DNA of 64,000 bases from a virus, in IMG/VR virus record IMGVR_UViG_3300025010_000004, positions 49,295 through 113,294 of that record. One strand, 5' to 3'. The notes beneath the pieces were generated by a model, which saw only the letters and a list, made by a program, of their open reading frames with translations, ran no database searches and was not told the DNA's origin. The position numbers were made by a program, and so were the translations under genes. Each line of letters opens with the position of its first letter. Position 1 is the stretch's first letter. This document shows, in pieces, positions 6,192 through 43,226 of this stretch.

Positions 6192-6207
6192 GTAGAACAT
6201 GTTCTAC
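6192..6207. promoter_or_regulatory. 16-bp palindrome, copy 2
   Basis: GTAGAACATGTTCTAC, overlapping the TAG stop of the NAMPT-like gene and just beyond the terminator of RNA 1. Confidence 0.75.
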
Positions 6208-7739: not shown

Positions 7740-8550
7740 CTCTTTTTACCTCCGTATAAAGTTGGTGTATGATAAGATTTTCTAGAGCAGTTGAATTACA
7801 CATTATGCTGTTTGTAGTATATACTTCGTCTATTAACTTTGATGTAAATATTTTCCCTGAGAATATAGTGTGCTCACAATGAGCAACCATAAGGTAAATA
7901 TTCGCAGCGCCATGGGATTTAAGCGCCTCGGCTGCCGCAATAAAAGTTCCGCCTTTGGAGCATAGATCGTCTACTATCAGAACTTTTTTACCTTTTACAC
8001 CTGTGCCTGACACAGAGTATTTTATGATATCACCAGTCTTGAAATCCCTTTCCTTGCTACCTACAGCGGAAGGATACCTTGCAACGTGACTATATCTCTT
8101 CTCAGCTCCTGCATCTGGGTAGAAAAGTATGGTGTTGTCCATTCCGTGCTTATCAACAAAGAGGGCCATGAGGGCTGGTATAATACTAATGTTTGTACAC
8201 CGGTTTAGAAGAGCAGTAGAAACGTCGGAATGTGCGTCAACTACTTTAACTCTCGCAAAGTGCATTGCGTTAATCATATCGCATATGTACTTTAAGTTGA
8301 AAGTGTATGTGTTGTTGGCTCTGTCCATTCTGCTGTACGGCATGTACAGAATCTTCAACGTCATTATGTTGTTCGGAATAACGTCATTCATGTAACTGCG
8401 AAGTATGTACAAGTCCATAAGGTCTTGATCGGTTTCGAACTTTAGTACAACAACTGAGCTGTTGTGAAAAGTTATCTTATTGTAGTTCAGGTATCTTTCG
8501 TTGTTAGGAAAAACACCGAACTCAACTTTTACATTGTCAATTAAAATCAC
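7732..8550 (-). CDS. Ribose-phosphate pyrophosphokinase-like enzyme (Prs or Adps)
   Basis: The protein has 272 residues against about 315 for a bacterial PRPP synthetase. The pyrophosphokinase signs are PYSRMDRA, VVDAHSDVSTALL in place of the usual VDLH motif, YPDAGAEKRY, and the PRPP loop VLIVDDLCSKGGTF. The divergent second motif and short length fit phage enzymes acting on ADP-ribose (Adps of NARP1) as well as ordinary PRPP synthesis. Start is GTG 8550 with AAAGGAGG ten bases upstream. With the overlapping NAMPT-like gene it forms a two-step NAD+ salvage unit; a palindrome copy lies 24 bases upstream. Confidence 0.88.
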   Translation of the reverse strand: MILIDNVKVEFGVFPNNERYLNYNKITFHNSSVVVLKFETDQDLMDLYILRSYMNDVIPNNIMTLKILYMPYSRMDRANNTYTFNLKYICDMINAMHFARVKVVDAHSDVSTALLNRCTNISIIPALMALFVDKHGMDNTILFYPDAGAEKRYSHVARYPSAVGSKERDFKTGDIIKYSVSGTGVKGKKVLIVDDLCSKGGTFIAAAEALKSHGAANIYLMVAHCEHTIFSGKIFTSKLIDEVYTTNSIMCNSTALENLIIHQLYTEVKRDA

Positions 8551-8573
8551 TGGATGTTACCTCCTTTATTTAG

Positions 8574-8589
8574 GTAGAACATGTTCTAC
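8574..8589. promoter_or_regulatory. 16-bp palindrome, copy 3
   Basis: GTAGAACATGTTCTAC between the pyrophosphokinase start and the upstream membrane gene, whose TAG stop it supplies. Confidence 0.75.
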
Positions 8590-8879
8590 TTATGCATTTC
8601 TTCGTAGTATCCTATGATTGGAGTGGTTATCGCAACGAACACTAGCCCAAAGATAGCTGAGCAGAACCCTAGAGACACGACTTCCTTTACGGTAGATATA
8701 TCCATTACGAAGTAGGCCACTAGCAGGCCTATCCAGAAACACTGGCAGAACGCGCAGTTATTTAGGAACCTTGTAGGAGTGGTTTTACTCATTAGTTTAG
8801 TCAGCCAACGCATGTGCTTGTGCTGAAACAGGAAGAACTGAACCCCTAATACGGTTAGTAGGAAAATACAGAATAACAT
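8586..8879 (-). CDS. Small membrane protein with CxxCxCFW motif, 97 aa
   Basis: Three hydrophobic segments can be seen (residues 1-17, about 47-62 and 70-90), with NNCAFCQCFWIGLL at the start of the second, a cysteine cluster at a membrane edge. TM segments and a terminal Lys suggest an inner-membrane protein. It precedes the NAD+ genes in transcription order and ends in the palindrome at 8574. I recall similar CxxCxxFW membrane proteins in phages but cannot name a function. Confidence 0.75.
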   Translation of the reverse strand: MLFCIFLLTVLGVQFFLFQHKHMRWLTKLMSKTTPTRFLNNCAFCQCFWIGLLVAYFVMDISTVKEVVSLGFCSAIFGLVFVAITTPIIGYYEEMHK

Positions 8880-8888
8880 TTTGCCTCC

Positions 8889-9977
8889 TTATTCTTTCGC
8901 TTTTATATTTAGCACAGGTTTTATGAAATCAACTACATCAATAGTAATACCCTCCTGCGCCTTCATGACGTAGTTAATGTCTTTGTATGCCTCTGGAGCC
9001 TCATCTAGTATGCTCCTATCTGTGGAACAAACAACGCCTTCCATCTGGCCTACGAATTTATCGTAGTCAAGATTCTTCTTGGCGGCGTTTCTGCCCATAG
9101 TTCGTCCACACCCGTGAGACGCCGATGAAAGAAACTTTTCATTACCAAGTCCTTTGGTGATGTACACACCATCCCTCATATTAGCAGGAATTATGCCAAG
9201 TTGATGTGCGTCGGCTGGCGTAGCACCTTTTCGGTGCAGCACTCCTTCTTTTGTAATAATTGCGTGGTTATGGTTTTCGTTAATTAGAAGATTGCTCTTG
9301 TATGTGACACCGAGAATCTTACATATTTTGTTTATCATTTTTAACCTGTTATATAACGCCCACTCTAACGCAAAATTCATATCCCCTAAGTAGGACAACC
9401 CAAGGTCTGATAATAAAGGAAACATTCTTCCTTGTTTCATGTACCACCCGCCTATTGTATGCCCAACGTTACGACTTCCTGAATGAATAGTCACACAATA
9501 CGTGCCAGTATTTTGGCTTATCCCTATCTCTATGAAGTGATTGCCCCCTCCTAGAGTACCTAGCTGCATAACAGATTTTTCTTTTACTCTCTGTTTCACT
9601 TCTTTAGGCATGTGAGAGTGGATAACATATTCAAAATGATAGTCTGACTTATCAAGAGATGAAAATCCAGTAGGGATGGTTTTAACTATATCATCGTATA
9701 ACTGTTTAAGGTTATCCTTTGATAGCTCATACTGAGGTATGTTTGTGTCAACCGAGCACATACCACATCCCACGTCGAAGCCTACGAAGCTAGGAGAGAT
9801 CATGCCGTCAAGCAAGGCCACTCCGCCGATTGGAAGATCATAACCAGCGTGAACGTCAGGCATAATAGCCAATTTTTTAAGACATTCCAATGAAAGAACG
9901 TCATAAATCTGCTGCTGCGCTGACTGCTCTATTTCTTCCATCGGCACCATAGACTGTAGTTTGTCAAGCTTGCTCAT
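8889..9977 (-). CDS. rtcB: RtcB RNA ligase
   Basis: RtcB joins 2',3'-cyclic phosphate and 5'-OH RNA ends with GTP and Mn2+, repairing cut tRNAs. Visible motifs are MPDVHAG (40-45), GFDVGCGM with the metal-binding Cys near 71, GTLGGGNHFIE, HSGSRNVGHTIG, NHNHA, and SHGCGRTMGR, which I match to the guanylate-accepting His region. At 362 residues it is shorter than the roughly 400 of E. coli RtcB, like other phage versions. ATG 9977 follows AAAGGAGATTAT. No RtcA or archease is next to it. In this genome it fits with the tRNAs, CCA enzyme and GluRS. Confidence 0.95.
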   Translation of the reverse strand: MSKLDKLQSMVPMEEIEQSAQQQIYDVLSLECLKKLAIMPDVHAGYDLPIGGVALLDGMISPSFVGFDVGCGMCSVDTNIPQYELSKDNLKQLYDDIVKTIPTGFSSLDKSDYHFEYVIHSHMPKEVKQRVKEKSVMQLGTLGGGNHFIEIGISQNTGTYCVTIHSGSRNVGHTIGGWYMKQGRMFPLLSDLGLSYLGDMNFALEWALYNRLKMINKICKILGVTYKSNLLINENHNHAIITKEGVLHRKGATPADAHQLGIIPANMRDGVYITKGLGNEKFLSSASHGCGRTMGRNAAKKNLDYDKFVGQMEGVVCSTDRSILDEAPEAYKDINYVMKAQEGITIDVVDFIKPVLNIKAKE

Positions 9978-11193: not shown

Positions 11194-11296
11194 TATTAAT
11201 GTCTCCTTTGAATGCGGTTGATATTACTTTGGCGTAGTATAAAGCATTTTTAAATGAGTCACCTAGCAGCCAATATTTTATAGTCAGTAGTATCAC
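11117..11296 (-). CDS. Possible overlapping small ORF, 59 aa
   Basis: A GTG at 11296 overlaps the gltX stop (GTGA) and opens 59 codons with a hydrophobic N-terminus (ILLTIKYWLLGDSF) and a basic end (RSRNIKRRRK). It overlaps the 62-aa gene by 77 bases in another frame. The overlap with gltX favours coupling, but the evidence is thin. Confidence 0.25.
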   Translation of the reverse strand: MILLTIKYWLLGDSFKNALYYAKVISTAFKGDINNANSGRRSCKTTLSFRSRNIKRRRK

Positions 11297-12639
11297 TTTA
11301 ACGCCGCCTTCATTCTTGCGACGGCCTCTTTCTTTCCAAGGACGTGCATTACATTTACTACAGGAGGCGAAGCTGTTTTACCTGTGAGAGCCATGCGTAT
11401 TTGCGGTCCGAGTTCTTTTAGCGTTACGTTATGTTTTTTACAGCCGTGGCTAATGGCCTCTTCTATATCTTCTATAGAATAGGTCTTTTTCTTCTCAAGT
11501 ATTTCCACTATGGAACCTACTGAATGATCGGCCCTTACCGCTTTAGGCTTTTTGTAATACACCTCAGCCATTTCTGCAATCTCAATTAAAGTCTTTGCCC
11601 TCGGCTGCAACAACTTCACAACCTCAATAATATCAGGGCCTTTGTCAGTTTTGTAGTGCATGAACGGCTTGGCTTGTTCCGCTATTCTCTTGGGATCGCC
11701 GTTCTTAATCCAATGCGCGTTAATGTGCAGCATTTTGTTCGGATCAAGACACCCTGGCGCTCTACCTACCGAATTAAGCGAGAACTTTTGTATCAGGTCG
11801 TCCATTGAGAATATTTCTTCATTCTTGTAGCTCCAGCCTACACGGGCAAGCCCATTGACAACAGCCTCCGGAAGAAAACCTTTATCCCTGTAGTCAAGGA
11901 CAGAAGCATCACCGTTTCTCTTACTGAGTTTTTCGCCTTTATCATTAAGGATGAACGGGGTGTGGGCATATTCAGGAACCGGAAAGCCAAGCGCCTGATA
12001 CAGCATAGTCTGGGCTGGCACGTTGCCTACTCCGTCAACGCCTCGGACAATATGTGTAACACCCTGTAGGGCATCATCAACCATATTTGCAAGGAGGTAT
12101 CCTACGCTTCCGTCCTGCCGTTGGATTACGAAGTCGCTGATCTCGCTGTTCTTCACGCTGATCTTTCCGAGAACATGATCTTTCCATTCTACGCGGCCCT
12201 GGTCTTGGGTCTTAAACCGTATGACGAATGGCTTTCCTTCTTGCTCTGGCTTTTCATAGCAGGTTCTATCGTAGAGGGGCTTTTGCTTGTTCCTCAGCAT
12301 TTCATCCCTTTTTGCTGTGAGTTCTTCTGCCGTGCAGTAACACTTGTAGGCTTTTTTCTCTTTCAGGAGTTTATCTACGTATTCCTTGTAGATGTGACCT
12401 CGTTCGCTTTGGTAGATTATTTCTACGTCACTTTTGATGCCAAGCCAGTTGAGCCCTTCTAAAATGTTGTCTGCGAACTCTTGGGTAGATCTTGAAAAAT
12501 CGGTATTCTCAATACGCACGATAAAAGTTCCTTTATGTTGCCTAGCAAAAATATAATTATGCAAACTCTGGCGGGCCATCCCACAGTGCCCTGGGCCGGT
12601 GTTAGATGGTGCTACGCGGCATACAATAGGTTTAGTCAT
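11293..12639 (-). CDS. gltX: Glutamyl-tRNA synthetase
   Basis: Class I synthetase of 448 residues (E. coli GluRS has 471) that charges tRNA-Glu in the cytoplasm. The HIGH-type motif is PSNTGPGHCG (11-20) and the KMSKS-type motif is KLSKRNGD near residue 240; the catalytic-core sequences VRIENTDFSRST and YLLANMVDDALQGVTHIVRG fit GluRS/GlnRS. The C-terminal 150 residues should be the anticodon-binding helical domain. Start ATG 12639 has AAAGGAGAATTTAATT; the frame opens further up only across the palindrome at 12670. A phage tRNA-Glu(UUC) lies at 26398. A synthetase in a phage is rare. GluRS is the target of the HipA toxin kinase, so resistance to it is one possible reason to carry a copy. Confidence 0.95.
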   Translation of the reverse strand: MTKPIVCRVAPSNTGPGHCGMARQSLHNYIFARQHKGTFIVRIENTDFSRSTQEFADNILEGLNWLGIKSDVEIIYQSERGHIYKEYVDKLLKEKKAYKCYCTAEELTAKRDEMLRNKQKPLYDRTCYEKPEQEGKPFVIRFKTQDQGRVEWKDHVLGKISVKNSEISDFVIQRQDGSVGYLLANMVDDALQGVTHIVRGVDGVGNVPAQTMLYQALGFPVPEYAHTPFILNDKGEKLSKRNGDASVLDYRDKGFLPEAVVNGLARVGWSYKNEEIFSMDDLIQKFSLNSVGRAPGCLDPNKMLHINAHWIKNGDPKRIAEQAKPFMHYKTDKGPDIIEVVKLLQPRAKTLIEIAEMAEVYYKKPKAVRADHSVGSIVEILEKKKTYSIEDIEEAISHGCKKHNVTLKELGPQIRMALTGKTASPPVVNVMHVLGKKEAVARMKAALK

Positions 12640-12669
12640 AATTAAATTCTCCTTTGTGTTAGTTTGTAA

Positions 12670-12685
12670 GTAGAACATTTTCTAC
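12670..12685. promoter_or_regulatory. 16-bp palindrome, copy 4 (one mismatch)
   Basis: GTAGAACATTTTCTAC, 31 bases upstream of gltX and just left of the plus-strand late-type promoter. Confidence 0.65.
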
Positions 12686-15733: not shown

Positions 15734-16321
15734 CTATTTAATAGTGTTTAGTACTGCGTCAACGGCATCAACGAACCCTTTGTCGAAGTTGCCTTCCTTA
15801 AACGCAATGCGCATTTTGTCTCTGACTATCTTACCGGCGGCAATATCGGTTAGCTTCTCTTCCAATCCACGGCCAACCTCAATCCTCATTTTACGATCAC
15901 CGCGAGATGCAAAGATAAGCACACCATCGTCTTTGCCTGACTTGCCCAACTTCCACGTTTCGCATACCGTCATTGTGTACGACTCAATATCAGAGTCGTT
16001 CAGGGACGGTATCGTAAGAATGGCTATTTGTGGGCCTCCACTTTTTAAGGTAGAGATGAGCAGTCTGTTCAACTGGTTTTTAGCCGAGTCAGAAATCATC
16101 CCGGCATAGTCATTGACCGGAGCTTTTAGCTCAGGTATTACCGCCTTGTTGACGGGAGTTGTGTCACTGCACCCGGCTGCCATTCCTAAGGCAAAGATAA
16201 CTAACGCCAATGCTATTGGGGCTAATGCTTCCTTTAACCTGTACAAGCGATAACTGCAGGAGTACCCTGGCTGCCACACTTCTCGCAACCCACCTAGCCA
16301 GTATTGCAGGCGTTCTTTCAT
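15734..16321 (-). CDS. TPM-domain (YgcG/Psb32-type) membrane-anchored protein
   Basis: After a basic stretch and a hydrophobic segment (ALAPIALALVIFALGMAAGC), residues from about 65 match the TPM domain: PVNDYAGMISDSAKNQLNRLL, QIAILTIPSL, DDGVLIFASRGDRKMRIEVGRGLEEKLTD and a final VDAVLNTIK helix. TPM proteins occur in bacterial envelopes and are often next to lemA. The start was moved to ATG 16321, six bases after AAAGGAG, rather than the ATG two codons upstream that touches the ribosome site. It lies between LemA and the Gly-tail gene. Cellular role in phage infection unknown. Confidence 0.85.
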   Translation of the reverse strand: MKERLQYWLGGLREVWQPGYSCSYRLYRLKEALAPIALALVIFALGMAAGCSDTTPVNKAVIPELKAPVNDYAGMISDSAKNQLNRLLISTLKSGGPQIAILTIPSLNDSDIESYTMTVCETWKLGKSGKDDGVLIFASRGDRKMRIEVGRGLEEKLTDIAAGKIVRDKMRIAFKEGNFDKGFVDAVDAVLNTIK

Positions 16322-16332
16322 GCACATCTCCT

Positions 16333-16956
16333 TTACGGTTTATTGTTTGATGGAGCTGCGCCACTGAAGCTGACTTTGGGCGCAATCTTCGCTCCCTCGT
16401 CAGACTTGAACGGTGTCTTCTTTTCCAGGTTAAGCAGGAGCGAGTTTGTAATTGAATTTGGGAACGTTCGTATCATGGTGTTGAATTCAGCCACTACTTT
16501 GTTGTAGCGCACACGTTCCGTGTTTATCCGGTTCTCGGTTCCCTCCAATTGGCTTTGCAGATTCATAAAACTTTCATTGGCCTTGAGGTCGGGGTATTTT
16601 TCAGTTACCATCATAAGCCGAGACAAGGCGGAGCCGATTGTTTGTTGCTGCGCCTGGAACTTGGCCATTTGCGCTGCATCCTGAAGACCTTTAGGATCAA
16701 GTTTGATTTGACCTACCGAGGCGCGTGCTTGAGCAACCTGTGTAAAGGTTTCTTTTTCGTGGGCAGCGTAGCCCTTTACGACCTCTACGAGGCTGGGGAT
16801 GAGATCTGCACGCCGTTGATAAGCAGCCTCAACATCGGCCCACTTGGCAAACACTTGCTCTTCCTTCGCTTGGATGGAGTTGTAGCCGCACCCGCTGTTA
16901 ATCAACATGAACGCCGCCATTGCCAACATCAGCCCTACTCTTACGAAACTCTTCAT
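16333..16956 (-). CDS. lemA: LemA-family lipoprotein
   Basis: 207 residues with a lipoprotein signal (LAMAAFMLINSGC, Cys 23) and the LemA core: FAKWADVEAAYQRRADLIPSLVEVVKGYAAHEKETFTQVAQARA, then a second helix pair with LMMVTEKYPDLKANESFMNLQSQLEGTENRI and RVRYNKVVAEFNTMIRTFPNSI. LemA proteins are long helical bundles anchored at the membrane and are usually found beside TPM proteins, as here. Ribosome site AAAGGAGGAACAA. A palindrome copy sits 23 bases upstream. Finding this bacterial pair within a phage genome is unusual. Confidence 0.92.
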   Translation of the reverse strand: MKSFVRVGLMLAMAAFMLINSGCGYNSIQAKEEQVFAKWADVEAAYQRRADLIPSLVEVVKGYAAHEKETFTQVAQARASVGQIKLDPKGLQDAAQMAKFQAQQQTIGSALSRLMMVTEKYPDLKANESFMNLQSQLEGTENRINTERVRYNKVVAEFNTMIRTFPNSITNSLLLNLEKKTPFKSDEGAKIAPKVSFSGAAPSNNKP

Positions 16957-18300: not shown

Positions 18301-18723
18301 CTATTGTGCTTCGTTTTTGTCGTAGATAGCGGCATACAAGGGTATATTGGCCGTGCAGCACTGTGAGTTGTAGGCTGCCAAATCGTAGCCTACAACTGCG
18401 AACGCCTTGTACATCATTATCCATAGCTTGAGTTCGGCTATCCTTTTGCGGACTGCCTTGCCGAACACGTAGAAGCGGATGGTGCGTATGATTGGGAGGC
18501 GCAGAATAGCATATTCTGCTACTGTTGGTAGTCCTTCGTATCTATTACATCTATGCCCTTTTATACTTATCCACGGGCAGGAGTCGCACTTAAGATTACT
18601 TACTTTGCACAAAGAACAACCCGTATAGGTCGTCTTGTGCGTGTATTTACGATACTCCACTATAAGCTGTTCCATAGCCTTGATATTCTCTTTGACGTTT
18701 ACCGGGGCCTTAAGCAGTCGCAT
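18301..18723 (-). CDS. Cys-rich protein, 140 aa
   Basis: GCSLCKVSNLKCDSCPWISIKGHRC (36-60) holds five Cys and one His, fitting a zinc or iron-sulfur site; another CC pair lies near the C-terminus. Helical, basic middle (RIAELKLWIMMYKAF). AAAGGAGAAATC precedes ATG 18723, within the end of cca, which it overlaps by 14 bases. Similar in style to the Cys-rich 197-aa protein at 3424. Function unknown. Confidence 0.72.
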   Translation of the reverse strand: MRLLKAPVNVKENIKAMEQLIVEYRKYTHKTTYTGCSLCKVSNLKCDSCPWISIKGHRCNRYEGLPTVAEYAILRLPIIRTIRFYVFGKAVRKRIAELKLWIMMYKAFAVVGYDLAAYNSQCCTANIPLYAAIYDKNEAQ

Positions 18724-20086
18724 TTTTGATTTCTCCTTTTTCTATGAGGGTTTTAGTGTATAACAGCCCGTCTTCCCTTGTCAAGAACTTTTCTTCCATT
18801 TGGTCTTCATACAGCCGTTGGAGGATAGCGCCGAAATGTTTTCCAGGCTCCATGCCCATATCAATAAGGTCTCGGCCAAGAATAATCGGGGTGACTTGTG
18901 ATTTTATTTCCTCGAACACGCGCATGACCTCAGAAATCCTAGCTGAGTTTTCAGGCTCATATTCAGCGGCTACAACACCACCACGTCCAAGCCTATCCGC
19001 CTTGTGCAATTTTACTAGCTTATACATGTCAACCGAGGCGGCCAACTTGCGCACAGCCTTACGGCTCACCCCTGCTTTCTTAAAATCGTAAGGCCTCATG
19101 TGATGCTTAATGAGATTTATAGCGGATTCAGTAAGTCCTATCTCATTTGTTAGCCGAGCGATAGCCTTTTCAGCCAAAGAAGTCTCTTCCGCGTGACCTT
19201 TGAAATGAATCTTACCGCTGTCTTCTGTGTTGACCTCATTAGGAACAAGCCCCTTCCCTAAATCATGAAATAAGAGGGCCAGCATAATATCCAATTCCCT
19301 GTCAATAACAGGAATGGCATCTATTGCCATAAGGGTGTGATTATACACGGAACCTTCTGGATGATACGTGCTTCCTTGTTCAATTTTCTTGGTAGCGACC
19401 AGCTCAGGAAACAGTACATCGAGAATGTCCATAGCCTCAAGCGTCTTGAAGAAAACGGATGGAAGAGGAGCGTTCATTAGAACTCGCACCACTTCATTAA
19501 ACACTCGTTCCTGAGGCAGAGCTTTAACTTTAATTGGGCCGTGTACTTTGCATAGCGCCATTGTTTGAGCTTCTATGTTCATGAACGGGTAAATAGCCTT
19601 GAACCTCGCTACTCTCAATATACGCAAAGGGTCTTCCATGAATGTGCCAACATTCACGTGCTTTATGCGCAAGATACGAAGGTCAGGTATCCCATTAAAC
19701 GGGTCTTCGAACTTACCCGTCAACGGATCGAGGTAAATAGCGTTCATCGTCAAGTCCCTACGAACCGCTGCCAAGCTCAACGGCAGCTCTTCGCGTATCC
19801 TAGCGGTTAGATCACGGTGTCCTTCGCCAGTTTGCTCATCAAGCCTCGGCAGGCTAACGTCAATATCTTTGACTTTGTAAACTCCGTATTGCTTGCCTAC
19901 GTAGTTGACCTCACCGAAAGTTTCGAGAACTGCTTCGAGCTTCTCGGCTGAGAGGTTGAAAACTTCAATGTCTATGTCGGTGGAAGGTATGCCTAGGAGT
20001 AAATTTCTTACGTGGCCTCCTGTATAAAAAACTGAACCTCCCGCCTTGTGAATTGCCAACGATAGTTCAAGCGCAAACTTTTGCAT
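18710..20086 (-). CDS. cca: CCA-adding tRNA nucleotidyltransferase with HD domain
   Basis: Adds or repairs the 3' CCA of tRNAs using CTP and ATP. 458 residues: class II nucleotidyltransferase head with GGSVFYTGGHVRNLLLG (16-32) and the catalytic DIDIEV (Asp 37, Asp 39), RRDLTMNAIYLDP, then EDPLRILRVARF, and an HD domain (NHTLMAIDA, LLFHDLGKG) with possible phosphohydrolase activity. Start ATG 20086 follows AAGGAGAAAGAAG. Four phage tRNAs encode CCA; the Met and Arg-like ones appear not to, so the enzyme would matter for them and for repair after tRNA cutting. A palindrome copy lies 16 bases upstream. Confidence 0.93.
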   Translation of the reverse strand: MQKFALELSLAIHKAGGSVFYTGGHVRNLLLGIPSTDIDIEVFNLSAEKLEAVLETFGEVNYVGKQYGVYKVKDIDVSLPRLDEQTGEGHRDLTARIREELPLSLAAVRRDLTMNAIYLDPLTGKFEDPFNGIPDLRILRIKHVNVGTFMEDPLRILRVARFKAIYPFMNIEAQTMALCKVHGPIKVKALPQERVFNEVVRVLMNAPLPSVFFKTLEAMDILDVLFPELVATKKIEQGSTYHPEGSVYNHTLMAIDAIPVIDRELDIMLALLFHDLGKGLVPNEVNTEDSGKIHFKGHAEETSLAEKAIARLTNEIGLTESAINLIKHHMRPYDFKKAGVSRKAVRKLAASVDMYKLVKLHKADRLGRGGVVAAEYEPENSARISEVMRVFEEIKSQVTPIILGRDLIDMGMEPGKHFGAILQRLYEDQMEEKFLTREDGLLYTKTLIEKGEIKNATA

Positions 20087-24223: not shown

Positions 24224-24889
24224 TTACCTCTCTTCTGGTGGTCTATATCCAATCTGCAAAGCGCGGAATATAGATTCCTCTGTTGGAGTTATAAGTTTGC
24301 CATTAGGCGTAAATATACCTTTCTCCGATAACTTCCACCCTCTGCGCTTAGCTTCTTCGCGCATAAGTATGTTTAACCTAGCGGAGCCAGTCCTGTATAG
24401 CAACTGCGGCGCCCAATCTTCTTCATCGACTCTGTTGATATCGAGAGGGACTTCTTCCCAGGTTCCTCTTAATGTAACTGGGCCGTTAATCTTAACTTTA
24501 AACTCATTCTGACCTACCATGAACTGTTTGAACCGTTCAAATGTATCAGCGTCAGTCTGGAGTATAATATCTACGTCCTTGGAGTCAGGAAGGAGCCTCC
24601 TATAGGAGCCTACAACTTCCCACTTGCCACCTGTCCATTCCAGCATCGGTACTATTTCTGATAATACTTCATCTATTCTAGCGCGAGTTATACGCAGCTC
24701 TTTTACAGCCTGTAAAGTAGGCTTAGCAGGTAGTAATTGCAGATGTTTGCAAGTACCACGAAACCGAAACCCTTCGCAACTACAGTGCCAGTGTACCTTT
24801 TTCTTTGTGAGAGCATACACTTTCCCATCCCACCTCTCCACTTTATATTCCGTGTCAGACACGGGTATGAGTCGGTATCCGTATAGCAT
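24224..24889 (-). CDS. SWIM zinc finger fused to a family X DNA polymerase core
   Basis: The N-terminal SWIM motif CxC-x8-CxH uses Cys 36, Cys 38, Cys 47 and His 49 (HCSCEGFRFRGTCKHL). From residue 85 it has a Pol X palm: GKWEVVGSYRRLLPDSKDVDIIL with GS at 94-95 and Asp 105/107, then VPLDINRV with the third Asp at 150, and the thumb-like YRTGSARLNILMREEAKRRGWKLSEKGIF. Family X enzymes fill short gaps in DNA repair. At 221 residues it lacks the 8-kDa lyase domain; the SWIM finger may replace it in DNA binding. The fusion is unusual. An alternative is a Pol X-like nucleotidyltransferase acting on RNA. Confidence 0.85.
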   Translation of the reverse strand: MLYGYRLIPVSDTEYKVERWDGKVYALTKKKVHWHCSCEGFRFRGTCKHLQLLPAKPTLQAVKELRITRARIDEVLSEIVPMLEWTGGKWEVVGSYRRLLPDSKDVDIILQTDADTFERFKQFMVGQNEFKVKINGPVTLRGTWEEVPLDINRVDEEDWAPQLLYRTGSARLNILMREEAKRRGWKLSEKGIFTPNGKLITPTEESIFRALQIGYRPPEER

Positions 24890-26397: not shown

Positions 26398-26472
26398 TGG
26401 CGTCCCTTACAGGATTTGAACCTGTGTCTCTCGCGTGAAAGGCGAGTGTCCTGTCCACTAGACTAAAGGGAC
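26398..26472 (-). tRNA. tRNA-Glu(UUC)
   Basis: 75 bases including an encoded CCA. Acceptor GTCCCTT/AAGGGAC, discriminator G, anticodon stem CTCGC/GCGAG with loop CTTTCAC (anticodon TTC), and T arm CAGG-TTCAAAT-CCTG. It resembles E. coli tRNA-Glu closely in the acceptor, D arm and anticodon arm. It lies apart from the other tRNAs; the phage also encodes a GluRS. Confidence 0.95.
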
Positions 26473-33143: not shown

Positions 33144-33611
33144 TTACTCTACCTTAAACCTAAAAGGTTCCTTTCCTTGTCTAAACAACCATATTGCCTC
33201 AGCCTGGCAGCAATGACCTTCCTGCCCGAAGAAGTCAGAGAAGCCATTATACTGTTCTATGACTTTTATAAGTTCAGGGTTTCCTTTTAGGTACACCCAC
33301 CATAGCATGTAATAGAATTCTTTCAATAAACTTACCGGCCATTTTTTACCATTAAACATAAAAGCAACTGTGGTCTTTCCTTTAGCTTCCTTCCAATGTA
33401 ACCCAGTCTCTAAATTGCCCCAGGCATCTTCAATTACTTTGGCACGCTGGAACCTAGACTCTATTGACTCGCTTAGGATTCCGCTGCCTATGTAGGCGTT
33501 AAAAGCACTAAATCTCTTATCGCCTCTATTACTACATTCAAGGAATGGCGGTTCTCCAAAGAACTGCATATTATCTATCCCTACTAATATCAGATAGACT
33601 TGTTCTGTCAT
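33144..33611 (-). CDS. Conserved-looking phage protein, 155 aa
   Basis: Has a distinctive core: FLECSNRGDKRFSAFNAYIGSG, SIESRFQRAKVIEDAWGN, HWKEAKGKTT and FGQEGHCCQAEAIWLFRQG. I remember relatives in other phages and some bacteria but no named function. The combination of SNRGDKRFS and W-EAKGK looks like a binding or enzyme site. It overlaps the next gene upstream by 41 bases. Cytoplasmic. Confidence 0.75.
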   Translation of the reverse strand: MTEQVYLILVGIDNMQFFGEPPFLECSNRGDKRFSAFNAYIGSGILSESIESRFQRAKVIEDAWGNLETGLHWKEAKGKTTVAFMFNGKKWPVSLLKEFYYMLWWVYLKGNPELIKVIEQYNGFSDFFGQEGHCCQAEAIWLFRQGKEPFRFKVE

Positions 33612-35583: not shown

Positions 35584-35612
35584 ATTATACCACACTTTAG
35601 GTGATTTGTCAA
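35584..35612 (-). promoter_or_regulatory. Sigma-70 promoter for the 32.7-35.5 kb genes
   Basis: On the minus strand TTGACA, 17 bases, TATAAT preceded by AGTGTGG. It starts the run from 35548 leftwards. Confidence 0.85.
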
Positions 35613-35863: not shown

Positions 35864-35892
35864 ATTATACCATACTTTTGTTGATTTGTCAA
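35864..35892 (-). promoter_or_regulatory. Sigma-70 promoter for tRNA-Ser and the Arg-like tRNA
   Basis: Minus strand: TTGACA, 17 bases, TATAAT preceded by AGTATGG. Confidence 0.85.
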
Positions 35893-37792: not shown

Positions 37793-37877
37793 TGGTGGGA
37801 GATACAGAAATCGAATCTGTACGCCTGTCGGCACGACTTTCTAAAAATCGCATGTCTACCTGTTCCATCAATCTCCC
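37793..37877 (-). tRNA. tRNA-Leu(UAG)
   Basis: 85 bases with CCA. Acceptor GGGAGAT/ATCTCCC, anticodon arm CGATT-TTTAGAA-AGTCG (anticodon TAG), long variable arm GCC-GACA-GGC, T arm ACAGA-TTCGATT-TCTGT, discriminator A. Confidence 0.93.
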
Positions 37878-37887
37878 AAATATTAAG

Positions 37888-37959
37888 TAGCGGGTACGGG
37901 AGTCGAACCCGTAAGCAGAAGGTTATGAGCCTTTGCGTTAACCATTACTTACAACCCGC
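37888..37959 (-). tRNA. tRNA-Met(CAU) or Ile-type CAU
   Basis: Anticodon loop CTCATAA on AAGG/CCTT, T arm ACGGG-TTCGACT-CCCGT, acceptor GCGGGT/ACCCGC. If a seventh position is counted, the first pair is T-T, resembling the unpaired 1-72 of initiator tRNAs, but the three GC pairs of an initiator anticodon stem are missing. No CCA encoded. The D arm is weak. Confidence 0.8.
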
Positions 37960-37965
37960 ATAAAA

Positions 37966-38136: not shown

Positions 38137-38165
38137 ATTATACCACACTTTGTGTAATTTGTCAA
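38137..38165 (-). promoter_or_regulatory. Sigma-70 promoter for the zinc ribbon and four tRNAs
   Basis: Minus strand: TTGACA, 17 bases, TATAAT preceded by AGTGTGG. Confidence 0.85.
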
Positions 38166-38168
38166 GCT

Positions 38169-38888
38169 TTATTTTTTGTTCCAGATACTTTTCTTATTCT
38201 CGTATGCTTCAACGTCAAGGGTCCAATCTTTAATAGTTAACTCATGGTTGTTGAAAGGCAGTTGGAAAGTTTCATTTGCAGGGTACCCTCCCCACTTTTC
38301 GCTAAAGTACTTTCCGTCCATTCCAAAAGTAATACTATTAGCACTATTGTAGCTTTCTGACTTTCTTATAGTGGCCGAACCATAGTGCCAAAACAGCGAC
38401 TGGTTTCCTATAAAGGCCCAATTAATGCCGGACAAATGCACCCTATGGTGGTAGTCGTTATCGCTGTAATACACGAACATATTTGGATCGAACGAGCCTA
38501 CGGTTTCGTAGCACTCTTTAGACATTGCCCAACAGTTCCAACTGTATTCATTTGCTACTGCAAACTGTAGGTTTTTATCCTCGAATTCTTTAACATAATT
38601 TTCTAGAAACCCAGGCTCCATTGTCGTATCAGAACCAACCACTACTACTAGCTCGTAGCCATTACTGAATGCATACTCTAGTATTTTATTCCAAGCGGCA
38701 CTTACTCCATTATGGTCAATACTTCTAAGAGTCGTAATTGTCTCTGTAAGCACTGAGTCAAATATACCAGTATCTTTATCTATGAACACAAGGTGGTCTA
38801 CACTATCTGATTTAGGCCAGCTTTTAATACATTTCTCTAGTAGGTCTGGGTTTGAAAATGCGGATGTAGCCAGTAAGCATTTTTTCAT
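38169..38888 (-). CDS. Glycosyltransferase family 2-like
   Basis: 239 residues: KKCLLATSAFSNPDLLEKCIKSW (first strand-helix), DHNGVSAAWNKILEYAFSNGYELVVVVGSDTTMEPGF with an acidic nucleotide-sugar motif, SYNSANSITFGMD, and FYSDNDYHHRV-type sequence (VYYSDNDYHHRVHLSG) with likely acceptor-site acidic residues. No TM segment. Last gene of the cluster 38.2-42.5 kb with another GT2, radical SAM, methyltransferase and GT4. Sugar and acceptor unknown. Confidence 0.8.
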   Translation of the reverse strand: MKKCLLATSAFSNPDLLEKCIKSWPKSDSVDHLVFIDKDTGIFDSVLTETITTLRSIDHNGVSAAWNKILEYAFSNGYELVVVVGSDTTMEPGFLENYVKEFEDKNLQFAVANEYSWNCWAMSKECYETVGSFDPNMFVYYSDNDYHHRVHLSGINWAFIGNQSLFWHYGSATIRKSESYNSANSITFGMDGKYFSEKWGGYPANETFQLPFNNHELTIKDWTLDVEAYENKKSIWNKK

Positions 38889-38920
38889 ACTAATCCTTTG
38901 CAGGTAACTTTGGTATTAGG

Positions 38921-39640
38921 CTAGAATACTCTAGGGTCGTTCTCATGAGCGCTTAACTCATTTCTTATCTGCTCTTCGGTTATATTATGATGGTGTGCAG
39001 TAAGGCCTTTTTCTAAGTTAGACCTAGACATACGTTCTTTCCTATTTTTAACTCTACGTTCTACTACATAAGAAGGGTCTGCCATCTGCCAGTGACTTCC
39101 TATAAAAGCTGGTTCGTTACTGTCCCACGAGCAGTAATGTTTATCCCCTACCCAACACTCGTGGATACCTAGGCCCCATTTAAAATTAGGCAATCCACCT
39201 TTAATGATATTCGGTTTTTTGTACATTTTGTGAAAGACCCCGTGCCTGCGTTGTTCTTTTATAGGCAGGCTAGGGTTAAGATCAGTTTCTGTATGGTGCC
39301 TAAAAACATCGTACAGCTTAGTAAAGTAAACATCCTTTGTCCCGTCTAAGAGTTGGTAGTCAAGGATAAATTCATCTGCATCGACGAGGAACACAAAATC
39401 TGCAGATGAATTTTGGTAGGCTTGGTTTAGAATATCCGTCTTTATAATATCATCCATTCCCGATGGAAATGAAAAGGAGCGAATTCTAGTATTAGGATAG
39501 CCCTCTACTATTCTTTTGGTATCGTCGGTAGTATCGGCATCTAAATACACAGTGATTAAGTCTATGTCTTTGTAGTGGTTTAAGAAGAATGGCATAAGAA
39601 ATTGTTCGTTATAAGCCATAACAATTAATTCAGTGGTCAT
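38921..39640 (-). CDS. Glycosyltransferase, GT2-like (DxD type)
   Basis: 239 residues. ELIVMAYNEQFLMPFFLNHYKDIDLITVYLDADTTDDTKRIVEGYP is a GT-A nucleotide-binding start. SADFVFLVDADEFI is the DxD-type motif. HGVFHKMYKKPNIIKGG and IGSHWQMADPSYVVERR follow, as in proteins that use a His-rich active site. Its start overlaps the stop of the radical SAM gene by one base, so it is coupled. Acceptor unknown. Confidence 0.85.
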   Translation of the reverse strand: MTTELIVMAYNEQFLMPFFLNHYKDIDLITVYLDADTTDDTKRIVEGYPNTRIRSFSFPSGMDDIIKTDILNQAYQNSSADFVFLVDADEFILDYQLLDGTKDVYFTKLYDVFRHHTETDLNPSLPIKEQRRHGVFHKMYKKPNIIKGGLPNFKWGLGIHECWVGDKHYCSWDSNEPAFIGSHWQMADPSYVVERRVKNRKERMSRSNLEKGLTAHHHNITEEQIRNELSAHENDPRVF

Positions 39641-40527
39641 TATAGTAGCTCTCCCACAAACCCTCTACCTTCTCCGCAGTTTTCGTCATCGGCTATGTCG
39701 CCTCTATAGTTACCTGGATACCAGCTTTTAATATTTTCTGCTAATTCTTCTTTAGTAAACTTATGGTCAAATATTTCTACGTCTGAGTCGTCAACCTTCT
39801 TAAGCCCAGCTTCCCTAAACTTAGCTAGAAGTAGCGGAGTAAACTTCTCAGTCTTATTTTTAATGAACTCCCTCTGCATTGGTATAGCCATACCACAGTT
39901 ACCACAAAGCGCGCTAACTTGGTCTTGAAAGTCGTATGGAGTTTTGTCCCACCACCCATCCACAACAGGCCAAGCGTTAGCCCCGCCGTTTAGTATTAAA
40001 TCCTGGCTGGCTGCGACTTCGCAGAAGTAACTCCCATGTTCATTGATGGTAGGGCACCAACTTTTCTGTACCCAGCACTGATTTAGGAGTTGGTCCTTTA
40101 TACGCTTGTCCTCTACTACCTCCGACAAAGCCACAGTAAGAGGTTGGTGCTTGCACACCTCCTTCTGTGCTGGGTCATGTGGGTTGAATGCTACATACGA
40201 AAACGTTTCATTTATAGTTGGGAGATACTCGTTGTATCTAGGCCCTCCAGAAGTCCACAGGTACACCTTATTTCTAGGAAACTTGCTTCTAATTAAAGCG
40301 CACATTTCTATAAAGTTGCTGTGGAGTACTGGTTCGCCTCCAATTATACCTATAAGGTTAGGCCAGTTCTTAAGGGAGTTTAGAGCTTCTTCTATCTTCT
40401 CTAAGCTCATATCTTTTACCTGGTCTGGCCTTAAATGCCTACTGTATCTGGAGCAGTACAAGCAAGCTCTTCCACATTTTGAGGTAACATCTATCTGGCA
40501 TACCCAGGCGTGATAAATAGGATTCAT
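39640..40527 (-). CDS. Radical SAM protein with auxiliary Cys (SPASM-like)
   Basis: CGRACLYC (Cys 18, 22, 25) is the CX3CX2C [4Fe-4S] site, followed by GIIGGEPVLH as SAM-binding GGE. Further Cys at CWVQKSWCPTINEHGSYFCEV and LCGNCG suggest auxiliary clusters, as in SPASM/Twitch enzymes. 295 residues. In the cluster it sits between a GT2 and a methyltransferase, with one-base overlaps. It may modify a sugar, a peptide or a protein; nothing shows which. Confidence 0.87.
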   Translation of the reverse strand: MNPIYHAWVCQIDVTSKCGRACLYCSRYSRHLRPDQVKDMSLEKIEEALNSLKNWPNLIGIIGGEPVLHSNFIEMCALIRSKFPRNKVYLWTSGGPRYNEYLPTINETFSYVAFNPHDPAQKEVCKHQPLTVALSEVVEDKRIKDQLLNQCWVQKSWCPTINEHGSYFCEVAASQDLILNGGANAWPVVDGWWDKTPYDFQDQVSALCGNCGMAIPMQREFIKNKTEKFTPLLLAKFREAGLKKVDDSDVEIFDHKFTKEELAENIKSWYPGNYRGDIADDENCGEGRGFVGELL

Positions 40528-40530
40528 TAG

Positions 40531-41115
40531 TTATTTCCTTAGGAACTCTTTGAATTTATCTACAGATATTAACCTCAAGGCATCTACGCGATTCTCTACT
40601 AGCCACTCCCAAGTAAGCTCTTCGTCCACACTAGGATTGTAAATTTTGTGCTCCTTAGGGAAAAATACTCCAACCCCGTAGTCAGTGTCTACTACGAAAG
40701 ATTCGTACCCATAGCCATAATTTATATCTACAACGGCCTTCCACACAGGACCCGTCCATTCTGAACATGTAGGAGGGACTGTTTGTAGATATTCTGAGTG
40801 TGGACTGCAATCATGCATAACTATTACGCCATTTGAATTAAGAACTTCCAGTGAATTCTGAAAATCCTTAAAAGACTGCTCTCTAGTGTGAAGTCCGTCT
40901 ATAAAAACTATATCAAACTTATCTTTATTGCCTGCGAAGAATTCATCAGAAGTCATTTCATGTGTGACCTCTTCACATTGCTTTACAGGGTCAACTCCTA
41001 CCTTAATTTGTGCATTTACGTTTCTTATAGAGTCGCCTACGTTGACACCTATTTCAAGATAGCTTTTGTAGCCGTACTTATCAATAAGACTATTAATTAT
41101 ATCTATTCTATTCAT
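40531..41115 (-). CDS. Class I SAM-dependent methyltransferase
   Basis: 194 residues: KSYLEIGVNVGDSIRNV is the SAM-binding motif I, FDIVFIDGLHTREQSFKDFQNSLEVLNSNGVIVMHD is motifs II-III with the D-G-H of Methyltransf_24-type sugar or FkbM-like enzymes. It overlaps the GT4 gene by 8 bases. Probable O-methylation of a sugar made by the neighbours; inferred from context. Confidence 0.85.
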   Translation of the reverse strand: MNRIDIINSLIDKYGYKSYLEIGVNVGDSIRNVNAQIKVGVDPVKQCEEVTHEMTSDEFFAGNKDKFDIVFIDGLHTREQSFKDFQNSLEVLNSNGVIVMHDCSPHSEYLQTVPPTCSEWTGPVWKAVVDINYGYGYESFVVDTDYGVGVFFPKEHKIYNPSVDEELTWEWLVENRVDALRLISVDKFKEFLRK

Positions 41116-42451
41116 GCATTCCCTCTATAGCTACAGATTCGTCTTTCATTACTTCCTCAATTACACCTTCGAATTCTTTTGCAGCAAAGTCCCAACTGAA
41201 CTCAGGTTTGTTGGCGAAGGCTATTGCCGACTTCGACCAAGCCTCTCTCTTTTTATCATCCCTAATCATATTCTTCATAGCGTTGGCGAAATCCGTAGGC
41301 TTTACTAGAGGACGTTCAAACGGCCCGTGCATTCCACCTAACCAGTATTTTTCTGCGTTAACTAAGAGGCCATTGCCTTTAACCATATCAGTTATACTAC
41401 CAGCTCCGTCAACTCCTATCTGTGGTAGTCCACAGGCTGCTGATTCTAAGTGGCAAAGTTCAAACCCTCCGCCTATACAAGTAGAAATAAAGCAATCGGA
41501 CATTCTATATATGTCTGCTATCTCTTCGTTAGTAAGACCTTCAGTGGCTCTGTCTGAACTGTTGTTCGTTATGATTACCTTTCCATTAATTCCAAGCCTG
41601 TCTATAAGTTCTGTTAAGTTCCACCCAACATCAACATTTTTGCAACCCAAGACTAGTACTGAGTTTGGGTATTTCCTTACAACCTCTTTGAATGCCTGCA
41701 AGGCTAGAGGCTGCTGTTTACGAACTGAGTTTCTTCCTACGTATGTAAAAACGAACGCATCCTTGTTAATGTTGAATTTGCTTCTGATTTCAGCTTTGCG
41801 TTCAGGTGAACAGGGGTAGTACGTCGATAGATCAACCCCATGATTTATTGTTTTCATACTTGCTAAAGCCCTACTATAGTTGCCTATATGTAGTTTTATA
41901 AACTCCAGTTGCTTATCTACCCAAGCAGTTTCAGTACTTCTAGATTCTATAAGCTGATGCCCTGCCGCTCTAAGTTTGGTTATCTGTCTGACAAACTCGT
42001 TTCGTATAGACACAAACCCAAATTCGTGGATAGGTACTATGTAGTTAAACCCAGCCAACATTTTAAGCCAGTTAATAGGAAGAGGCGCCCCGTCTATAGG
42101 AACATGAGTAACTGCCTTAAAAGTATTTCTGAGTTTGATAGGCACTATGGTATTATCGTTTATAAAAGAGTTCATGTGTACGTCCAACAGAGATATTACA
42201 ACGGCAGGTTTGTACTCTTCTACGATTGATACAAATTTATCTTCTGAATACTGGTCTTCCCCGCTAGTATATATTTTCCAGTTAGGCTCTTGCTTGTAGC
42301 CTTTACCTTCTGGATTTCCTAGCCCTAGTTCAGCTATTTCGTATTTATTAGTGGCGCTAAGTCTGTTCAGCAACTCTAAGGATACTTTTCCAAATCCTGA
42401 GTTAGAGGATACTGAGCAGTCAGAGTGCCATAGAATTTTAAGTTTGGACAT
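41108..42451 (-). CDS. Glycosyltransferase group 1 (GT4)
   Basis: 447 residues of GT-B fold: SNSGFGKVSLELLNRL near the N-terminus, FVFTYVGRNSVRKQQPLALQAFKEVVRKYPNSVLVLGC at the start of the second domain, and IYRMSDCFISTCIGGGFELCHLESAACGLPQIGVDGAGS, the E-x7-E nucleotide-sugar site. It is transcribed first in the cluster. No signal peptide, so cytoplasmic. Donor and acceptor unknown. Confidence 0.9.
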   Translation of the reverse strand: MSKLKILWHSDCSVSSNSGFGKVSLELLNRLSATNKYEIAELGLGNPEGKGYKQEPNWKIYTSGEDQYSEDKFVSIVEEYKPAVVISLLDVHMNSFINDNTIVPIKLRNTFKAVTHVPIDGAPLPINWLKMLAGFNYIVPIHEFGFVSIRNEFVRQITKLRAAGHQLIESRSTETAWVDKQLEFIKLHIGNYSRALASMKTINHGVDLSTYYPCSPERKAEIRSKFNINKDAFVFTYVGRNSVRKQQPLALQAFKEVVRKYPNSVLVLGCKNVDVGWNLTELIDRLGINGKVIITNNSSDRATEGLTNEEIADIYRMSDCFISTCIGGGFELCHLESAACGLPQIGVDGAGSITDMVKGNGLLVNAEKYWLGGMHGPFERPLVKPTDFANAMKNMIRDDKKREAWSKSAIAFANKPEFSWDFAAKEFEGVIEEVMKDESVAIEGMHE

Positions 42452-42517: not shown

Positions 42518-42703
42518 TTACTGTGGAGTATACCCGTCTTTTGCCCAGCCTTTACCTTTGAAAACTACAGCTACAGGGCCTACAGTTGGTTCCATGTCGC
42601 TTCCGCAGGTTGGACATTCGTACGTCCTAGGACTATTATATTTTTTATATACGTCAGTTACAACTTCTCCGCATAATTTGCAACTAAAATCAAGCAACGG
42701 CAT
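42518..42703 (-). CDS. FmdB-type zinc ribbon, 61 aa
   Basis: MPLLDFSCKLCGEVV and YECPTCGSDMEPTVGPVAVVFKGKGWAKDGYTPQ match the FmdB/putative regulatory zinc-ribbon pattern, with the typical F-G-GW end. The role in phages is not known. Confidence 0.82.
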   Translation of the reverse strand: MPLLDFSCKLCGEVVTDVYKKYNSPRTYECPTCGSDMEPTVGPVAVVFKGKGWAKDGYTPQ

Positions 42704-42706
42704 TTT

Positions 42707-42928
42707 CTATTTCCCCCTGTTCTTACGTCTTGAATCTTTGGCCATCTTGCGCTTGACCTTGGATTTAGCTTTTTTATTCTGAACCTTCTTCTGTGTAATC
42801 TCAAGCTTCTTTAGTTGAGATTTTTTGTAGGCCAGCAAATCAGCCACAACTTTATCGCGGCGGGATACTGCCTCTTCTATTCTAGCTACCTCGTCTACTG
42901 AAATTGATTCGCCGGGTGAATCTGTCAT
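42707..42928 (-). CDS. Small basic protein, 73 aa
   Basis: ATG 42928 (MTDSPGESISVDEVARIEEAV) follows AAGGAGGATTTAAA. Helical with a very basic end (KKVQNKKAKSKVKRKMAKDSRRKNRGK). First gene after the minus promoter at 42959. Function unknown. Confidence 0.7.
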   Translation of the reverse strand: MTDSPGESISVDEVARIEEAVSRRDKVVADLLAYKKSQLKKLEITQKKVQNKKAKSKVKRKMAKDSRRKNRGK

Positions 42929-42958: not shown

Positions 42959-42987
42959 ATTATACCATACTTTGCCCAAAAAGTCAA
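42959..42987 (-). promoter_or_regulatory. Sigma-70 promoter for the glycosylation run
   Basis: Minus strand: TTGACT, 17 bases, TATAAT preceded by AGTATGG. It faces the plus-strand promoters at 43046 and 43198. Confidence 0.82.
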
Positions 42988-43045: not shown

Positions 43046-43074
43046 TTGACAAATTTCAATTTCTGTGGTATGAT
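43046..43074 (+). promoter_or_regulatory. Sigma-70 promoter upstream of the structural block
   Basis: TTGACA, 17 bases, TATGAT preceded by CTGTGG. The hairpin that follows is base-for-base the one at 6050. Confidence 0.8.
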
Positions 43075-43197: not shown

Positions 43198-43226
43198 TTG
43201 ACTTTTGGTGAAAAGTGTGGTATAAT
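43198..43226 (+). promoter_or_regulatory. Second sigma-70 promoter of the structural block
   Basis: TTGACT, 17 bases, TATAAT preceded by AGTGTGG. Confidence 0.8.

What the first reader, a model, noticed from the sequence alone, without database searches (positions are those of the whole stretch)
38169..42451. Glycosylation cluster with radical SAM and methyltransferase
Seen: five coupled genes: GT4, class I methyltransferase, radical SAM with auxiliary Cys, and two GT2-like enzymes, under one promoter beside the structural block. Phages use glycosyltransferases to decorate DNA, capsids or host antigens; a radical SAM in the set is unusual.
Basis: partly seen in the sequence, partly recalled or inferred. 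Interest (0 to 1): 0.68.

Follow-up and report, generated by a model that had tools for sequence, protein, structure and literature searches.

The report
Phage sugar-decoration cassette with radical-SAM enzyme
A phage known only from environmental DNA carries five coupled genes that very probably build and chemically alter a sugar chain, most likely on the phage particle itself, using a radical-chemistry enzyme from a large, mostly viral family found in uncultured phages but not in the roughly 50,000 catalogued phage genomes.

Summary
Five tightly spaced minus-strand genes (GT4, Methyltransf_24, radical SAM, two GT2-type enzymes) occupy exactly 38169-42451. They lie behind one strong promoter-like site, after two small genes, divergent from terminase and portal. 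The record is a 113-kb metagenomic T5-like phage. With a 20-sequence alignment the radical SAM protein models well (pLDDT 88). Its best solved matches are SpeY and BtrN, 'Twitch' radical-SAM dehydrogenases that oxidise alcohols of sugar-like substrates. All 93 aligned relatives keep four auxiliary cysteines. Relatives fall into an anaerobe clade beside GT2 and sugar-epimerase genes, and 129 viral contigs; three divergent members give no match in 50,697 phage records. In the closest phage relative the same five gene types sit directly upstream of terminase, on its strand; in others the enzyme sits among head and tail genes. No thymidylate-synthase-family base hydroxymethylase, GtrA or tyrosine integrase was found, so DNA glucosylation and classical serotype conversion are less likely. 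Best reading: a virion-glycan cassette in which the radical SAM enzyme oxidises a sugar. Glycan cassette: strong; virion target: moderate; exact reaction: inferred. One near-identical contig carries divergent alleles of the radical SAM and last GT genes, each beside an endonuclease-like gene.

The parts
42959..42987 (-). sigma-70-like promoter (TTGACT-17-TATAAT, extended -10 TG) that would drive the operon
   Evidence: consensus scan, 11 of 12 matches; the region is 99% identical in the relative L002; not shown to function
42707..42928 (-). small Lys-rich protein of unknown function, first gene behind the promoter
   Evidence: ORF (likely ATG start at 42928); homologs in the relatives L003/L005, which lack the cassette at this position
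42518..42703 (-). small Zn-ribbon (FmdB-like) protein, second gene of the operon
   Evidence: read from the sequence; the homolog L003:6361-6582 matches Zn_ribbon_8 at 1.9e-9
41108..42451 (-). GT4 glycosyltransferase, 447 aa
   Evidence: PF00534 1.6e-15; phrog_2170 4.8e-30; nearest solved chain by sequence is the glycosyltransferase B736L, 3oy2, 1.3e-7
40531..41115 (-). class I SAM methyltransferase (Methyltransf_24), probable sugar O-methyltransferase, 194 aa
   Evidence: PF13578 1.2e-10; FIDGxH motif conserved in phage relatives; no [DNS]PP[YFW] motif; family hits within three genes of the radical SAM gene in 22 of 82 viral loci
39640..40527 (-). Twitch-type radical SAM enzyme, 295 aa; core C18-X3-C22-X2-C25, auxiliary C151-X17-C169-X38-C208-X2-C211
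   Evidence: PF04055 2.5e-9; four auxiliary Cys in 93 of 93 relatives; AF2 pLDDT 88.2, pTM 0.87; Foldseek best hits SpeY and BtrN
38921..39640 (-). GT2-type glycosyltransferase (GT2a, Glyco_tranf_2_4), 239 aa, with a DxD (VDADEF)
   Evidence: PF13704 1.1e-8; its family lies within four genes of the radical SAM gene in all 12 loci of the window's subclade, L119-L130
38169..38888 (-). GT2-type glycosyltransferase (GT2b), 239 aa, last gene of the cassette
   Evidence: PF00535 3.2e-5; phrog_29879 5.2e-11; weak rhamnosyltransferase similarity, TIGR01556 9.7e-10, far below its cut-off
38137..38165 (-). strong promoter-like site immediately downstream of the cassette, starting the tRNA/PhoH unit
   Evidence: 12 of 12 consensus matches; similar sequences recur upstream of other minus-strand units, for example 35892-35864 and 35612-35584

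Best explanation
The cassette is a cytoplasmic glycan-assembly and tailoring module used to decorate the phage particle, with a head or tail protein as the likeliest acceptor. Three glycosyltransferases (GT4, GT2a, GT2b) add sugars taken from host nucleotide-sugars. The Methyltransf_24 enzyme O-methylates one of the sugars. The radical SAM enzyme abstracts a hydrogen from a sugar carbinol carbon with a 5'-deoxyadenosyl radical, and its fully ligated auxiliary cluster takes the electron, giving a keto-sugar. Shown here: the gene set, the Twitch architecture, the fold match to SpeY/BtrN, repeated linkage to GT, MT and epimerase genes, and placement within structural gene blocks of relatives. Inferred: that the substrate is a sugar, that the net reaction is oxidation rather than epimerisation, that MT24 acts on oxygen of a sugar, and that the acceptor is a virion protein.
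For: Foldseek of a confident model: SpeY E 7e-9, BtrN E 1e-6, both aligned over about 250-290 columns. Four auxiliary cysteines invariant in 93 of 93, no further invariant cysteine seen beyond these and the three of the core; BtrN has a four-Cys-ligated cluster and does a two-electron oxidation (PMC9012708). Cellular relatives: of 33 selected neighbouring proteins 19 are GT2 and 8 are NDP-sugar epimerase/dehydratase. Phage relatives: L119 has GT4-rSAM-MT24-GT2a-GT2b directly upstream of TerL-portal on one strand; rSAM within four genes of GT2a in all 12 subclade loci; MT24 within three genes in 22 of 82 loci. The phage neighbours examined include major head, head-tail adaptor, head closure, tail terminator, major tail, portal and glycosyltransferase families. 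No base hydroxymethylase of the TS family, no GtrA, no tyrosine integrase, no hydrophobic segments.
Against: No glycan, acceptor or reaction has been observed. In this phage the cassette is on the strand opposite the structural genes, under the same promoter type as the PhoH/tRNA units. TM-scores to SpeY/BtrN are only 0.4-0.5 at about 15% identity. Structural-block placement could also suit enzymes that alter the host surface, as proposed for pelagimyophages (PMC7029224). Some cellular relatives sit among flagellar export genes (L037, L040), so proteins may be direct substrates. The neighbours scanned were chosen by me, not drawn at random.
Confidence: 0.55

Rival explanations
1. The cassette modifies the host cell surface (O-antigen, capsule or S-layer glycan) during infection to block superinfection or free progeny from decoy receptors; the radical SAM and MT enzymes tailor that surface sugar.
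For: GT2 and epimerase genes flank cellular relatives, and nucleotide-sugar genes follow the one in Brachyspira L038. A Brachyspira plasmid block of radical SAM, glycosyltransferase and rfbC is interpreted as LOS/glycosylation (PMC4267127). Radical SAM and GT cassettes in pelagimyophage host-recognition clusters are read as O-chain modification (PMC7029224).
Against: No GtrA flippase and no tyrosine integrase found; no membrane segment in any of the five proteins; homologous cassettes lie between head and tail genes.
Confidence: 0.25
2. The enzymes glycosylate phage DNA as a shield against restriction.
For: Phage glycosyltransferase sets that hypermodify DNA are known (Pyle et al. 2024, cited in PMC12619734). 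PHROGs labels the methyltransferase family 'DNA methyltransferase'.
Against: No thymidylate-synthase-family base hydroxymethylase in G000, although the record may be incomplete; only a ThyX-like match; no [DNS]PP[YFW] motif in the MT. The Tet/JBP search was uninformative because no control rang.
Confidence: 0.07
3. The radical SAM enzyme is a peptide or protein maturase (RiPP-like), and the GTs glycosylate the same modified protein.
For: The core matches RiPP-maturase models weakly, HxsC 5.5e-10. Two Selenomonadaceae relatives lie beside flagellar export genes.
Against: The HxsC score is 38.6 bits against a cut-off of 268, core only. A SPASM motif would need seven cysteines (PMC6231123); here four are invariant. 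No precursor peptide was seen, though none was systematically sought. Best full-length fold hits are the small-molecule dehydrogenases SpeY and BtrN.
Confidence: 0.08

Closest known systems
BtrN and SpeY, Twitch radical-SAM dehydrogenases of aminocyclitol antibiotic pathways
   Same: CX3CX2C core, one four-cysteine auxiliary site, best full-length fold matches
   Different: about 15% identity, TM 0.4-0.5; encoded in phages beside GT and MT genes; substrate unknown
Mycobacteriophage virion glycosylation (Freeman et al. 2023, known here only through citing papers)
   Same: phage-encoded glycosyltransferases; glycans on capsid and tail-tube proteins
   Different: no radical SAM enzyme is described there in what I could read; unrelated phage group; glycan here not demonstrated
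Radical SAM gene cassettes and glycosyltransferases of pelagimyophages (PMC7029224)
   Same: radical SAM genes and GTs in variable phage regions linked to host recognition
   Different: different phages; no sequence comparison made here; GTs interpreted there as LPS modification
Chlorovirus glycosyltransferase B736L (3oy2; its virus and the capsid-glycan role are from general knowledge)
   Same: nearest solved sequence to the window GT4 (1.3e-7); GT plus MT logic of capsid glycans
   Different: eukaryotic virus; distant similarity
Brachyspira hyodysenteriae plasmid block (radical SAM, GT group 1, epimerase, rfbC; PMC4267127)
   Same: radical SAM with glycosyltransferase and rhamnose-type genes; a relative occurs in Brachyspira alvinipulli (L038)
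   Different: cellular; homology of that plasmid protein to this family was not tested
Intronless homing / marker exclusion by free-standing endonucleases in T-even phages (PMC2988022)
   Same: endonuclease gene beside a swapped allele, consistent with co-conversion of flanks
   Different: here inferred from one contig pair; cleavage not tested

Membership tests
Twitch radical-SAM dehydrogenase (BtrN/SpeY type) | CX3CX2C radical-SAM core | tested here: met
   C18, C22, C25 in 92 of 93 aligned relatives (one gap); the allele in L002 is CX4CX2C
Twitch radical-SAM dehydrogenase (BtrN/SpeY type) | single auxiliary cluster site with four cysteines | tested here: met
   C151, C169, C208, C211 in 93 of 93; cluster itself not observable with these tools
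Twitch radical-SAM dehydrogenase (BtrN/SpeY type) | full-length fold similarity | tested here: inconclusive
   top hits SpeY 7e-9 and BtrN 1e-6, probability 1.00, but TM 0.4-0.5
Twitch radical-SAM dehydrogenase (BtrN/SpeY type) | two-electron oxidation of a carbinol | not testable with these tools
   needs anaerobic enzymology
SPASM radical SAM (RiPP maturases) | seven-cysteine SPASM motif, two auxiliary clusters | tested here: not met
   only four invariant auxiliary cysteines; motif definition from PMC6231123
Methyltransf_24 (PF13578) | score above Pfam gathering threshold | tested here: met
   42.6 bits against 26.3
DNA N-methyltransferase | motif IV [DNS]PP[YFW] | tested here: not met
   absent
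GT4 / GT2 glycosyltransferases | Pfam gathering threshold for PF00534, PF13704, PF00535 | tested here: met
   57.5/26.4, 35.9/27.5 and 24.3/23.3 bits
Virion glycosylation module | glycan on a head or tail protein, lost when the GT is deleted | not testable with these tools
   only genomic placement supports it
Gtr serotype-conversion cassette | GtrA flippase with temperate lifestyle | tested here: not met
   no GtrA and no tyrosine integrase in G000, which may be incomplete; serine integrase not searched
T-even-like DNA glucosylation | hydroxymethylated base supplied by a TS-family hydroxymethylase | tested here: not met
   no PF00303 match in G000; ThyX-like match only

The most novel reading that the evidence does not exclude
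A large, mostly viral family of Twitch radical-SAM enzymes, not found in isolate phage records, is a standard part of virion-glycan operons in uncultured phages. There it oxidises sugars attached to capsid or tail proteins, which would be radical-SAM tailoring of a viral glycan. In this lineage, homing endonucleases exchange the radical SAM and terminal glycosyltransferase alleles and so diversify the glycan.
Probability: 0.35. Interest if true: 0.78.

Novelty: new variant of a known kind. Interest (0 to 1): 0.56.

Why it matters
Phage particles are usually treated as bare protein shells, and only a few virion glycans have been characterised. If the reading is right, many uncultured phages build chemically elaborate glycans into their heads or tails with an oxygen-sensitive radical enzyme. 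That would affect receptor binding, immune recognition and defence evasion, and would supply new sugar-modifying enzymes. The family also offers a sequence marker for finding such phages.

Tried and rejected
Direct blastn/tblastn of the region and of single proteins against 50,697 phage records: nothing for rSAM, GT2a or GT2b; distant hits for GT4 and MT. Single-sequence scans of viral and genome contigs with the rSAM found nothing; alignments reached 113 genome and 129 viral relatives. A first AlphaFold model from two sequences was useless (pLDDT 42) and was not used. DNA-modification and classical Gtr readings were tested and set aside. I first took the 100.000% identity of G001 to window 1-37796, followed by sudden divergence through the cassette, as proof of a hypervariable island. 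I withdrew that because a metagenome strain switch or chimera at the tRNA region would look the same. A junction search found no second contig to decide it. The Tet/JBP search had no positive control. The phage host could not be assigned.
Full report
CHECK OF THE OBSERVATION. They overlap or lie within 32 nt of each other. The promoter scan puts an 11/12 site at minus 42987-42959 and a 12/12 site at minus 38165-38137, just after the last stop codon. Two small genes, one Lys-rich and one Zn-ribbon-like, lie between the first promoter and the GT4 gene. Terminase and portal genes start at 43291 on the other strand.

WHERE IT LIES. The window is the last 64 kb of a 113,294-bp IMG/VR record. TerL is about 30% identical to those of T5-like phages. 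The phage carries NrdD/NrdG-like genes and therefore probably infects a host that grows without oxygen (inference), which suits radical-SAM chemistry. Its relatives L003/L005 (TerL 74% identical) have the two small genes followed by PhoH without any GT, MT or radical SAM gene at this place. The cassette is therefore accessory: gained in this lineage or lost in the other.

THE RADICAL SAM PROTEIN. The closest sequence is 60% identical, in L119. Alignment of 93 relatives shows the three core cysteines in 92 of 93 and four auxiliary cysteines, C151-X17-C169-X38-C208-X2-C211, in 93 of 93. In the 20- and 22-sequence alignments no other cysteine is invariant, so there is no universal cysteine to donate a hydrogen, which leans to oxidation rather than cysteine-dependent epimerisation (inference). 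With 20 sequences AlphaFold gives pLDDT 88.2 and pTM 0.87. Foldseek ranks SpeY (7e-9) and BtrN (1e-6) first. Both are Twitch dehydrogenases; BtrN performs a two-electron oxidation with a four-cysteine auxiliary cluster (PMC9012708). TM-scores of 0.4-0.5 make this a resemblance of architecture, not proof of the same reaction.

RELATIVES IN CELLS. A genome scan found 113 relatives. The nearer cellular ones come mostly from anaerobe lineages such as Gastranaerophilales, Selenomonadaceae, Brachyspira, Lachnospiraceae and Desulfopila. Among 33 selected neighbouring proteins, 19 match Glycos_transf_2, 8 match NDP-sugar epimerase/dehydratase, and four are flagellar export proteins from two Selenomonadaceae loci. 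A more distant relative on a Salinivibrio plasmid also lies beside two glycosyltransferases.

RELATIVES IN PHAGES. A scan of viral contigs found 129 relatives (80 kept), whereas tblastn of three divergent members found none in 50,697 phage records. A FastTree tree places the window protein with L119 and L002 in a subclade with L120-L130. In all 12 loci L119-L130 a GT2a homolog lies within four genes of the radical SAM gene, often adjacent. MT24 homologs lie within three genes in 22 of 82 loci. L119 has GT4-rSAM-MT24-GT2a-GT2b followed by TerL and portal on the same strand. L034, binned as a Gottesmanbacteria genome but carrying a terminase and an internal virion protein, has MT24-rSAM-NDP-sugar epimerase. 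Fifty selected neighbours of these phage genes include major head, head-tail adaptor, head closure, tail terminator, major tail, head protease, portal and glycosyltransferase families. In L137 the gene is followed by GT2, MT24 and a protein whose start resembles CMP-nonulosonate synthetases (by eye, not tested).

MECHANISM. The set reads as a cytoplasmic sugar-transfer and tailoring line fed by host nucleotide-sugars; no NDP-sugar epimerase (PF01370) is found in G000. Its repeated placement among head and tail genes makes a virion protein the likeliest acceptor. Against DNA: no TS-family hydroxymethylase, no DNA-methyltransferase motif IV. Against a Gtr-type cassette: no GtrA, no tyrosine integrase, no hydrophobic segments. 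Host-surface modification remains the main rival.

ALLELE EXCHANGE. The contig G001/L002 has GT4 at 95% nucleotide identity (dS 0.24), MT at 91% (0.33) and GT2a at 89% (0.59), but the radical SAM gene at 61% (dS 2.2) and GT2b at 65% (dS saturated). Next to each divergent allele, and only in L002, lies an extra gene: an EndoVII/HNH-like gene (phrog_1035, 6e-26) after rSAM, and a second, weakly endonuclease-like gene before GT2b. The first ends in ...GFVGELL, the very end of the window's radical SAM protein; L119's ends in GFKGEL. This is what insertion of an endonuclease gene at the 3' end of a window-type radical SAM gene would leave, together with exchange of the upstream allele, as in intronless homing with co-conversion (PMC2988022). 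Caution: G001 is 100.000% identical to window 1-37796 and then diverges abruptly, so part of the contrast may reflect a strain switch in assembly. The within-cassette contrast does not depend on that breakpoint, but it rests on one contig.

NOVELTY. Phage glycosylation cassettes and radical SAM genes in phages are both known, the latter noted in pelagimyophages (PMC7029224). What appears new is this Twitch family as a recurrent partner of GT and MT genes inside phage structural blocks; a literature search for the combination returned nothing that describes it.

Noticed in passing
window 11293-12678 (-) and 26398-26472 (-): The phage encodes a glutamyl-tRNA synthetase (PF00749 2e-82) and a tRNA-Glu; a whole aminoacyl-tRNA synthetase is unusual in a phage of this size.
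   Followed up: no
window 6204-9977 (-): NAD-salvage and repair block: nicotin(amid)ate phosphoribosyltransferase, PRPP-synthetase-like protein and RtcB RNA ligase; possibly counter-defence against NAD depletion or tRNA cleavage.
   Followed up: no
window 33144-33611 (-): NADAR-DarT1-like antitoxin domain protein (PF22397 6e-9) in a phage, a possible anti-DarT (ADP-ribosyl removal) factor.
   Followed up: no
window 15734-16956 (-): Adjacent TPM-domain and LemA-family proteins, a pair normally seen in cells.
   Followed up: no
window 18710-20086 and 24224-24889 (-): CCA-adding/polyA-polymerase-like protein with HD domain, and a DNA polymerase beta-like protein.
   Followed up: no
window 35584-35612, 35864-35892, 38137-38165, 42959-42987 (-); 43046-43074, 43198-43226 (+): Recurrent near-consensus extended -10 promoters head the transcription units here, minus-strand and structural alike.
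   Followed up: partly
window 41108-42451 and 38169-38888: By eye, the EX7E motif of the GT4 reads GGFELCHLE, with Gly in place of the first Glu; GT2b has SDT where DxD is expected.
   Followed up: no
L002 3535-4269 and 4992-5618: EndoVII/HNH-like gene and a second endonuclease-like gene inserted inside the cassette of a near-identical phage contig, each beside a divergent allele.
   Followed up: partly
window 37797-37965 versus G001: Sharp breakpoint from 100% to about 44% identity inside the tRNA-Leu/tRNA-Met region; recombination or assembly strain switch.
   Followed up: partly
L037, L040 (Selenomonadaceae): Cellular relatives of the radical SAM gene sit within the flagellar export genes (FliP/FliQ/FliR), hinting at a role in flagellar glycan or protein modification.
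   Followed up: no
L020 8074-11073 (relative phage G002): Anaerobic ribonucleotide reductase ORF of 999 aa against about 659 aa in G000, with an internal insert that looks like an intein (by eye).
   Followed up: no
L034 (JAHFKK010000003.1): A contig binned as Candidatus Gottesmanbacteria carries phage terminase and internal virion protein genes, so it is a phage or a misbinned contig.
   Followed up: partly
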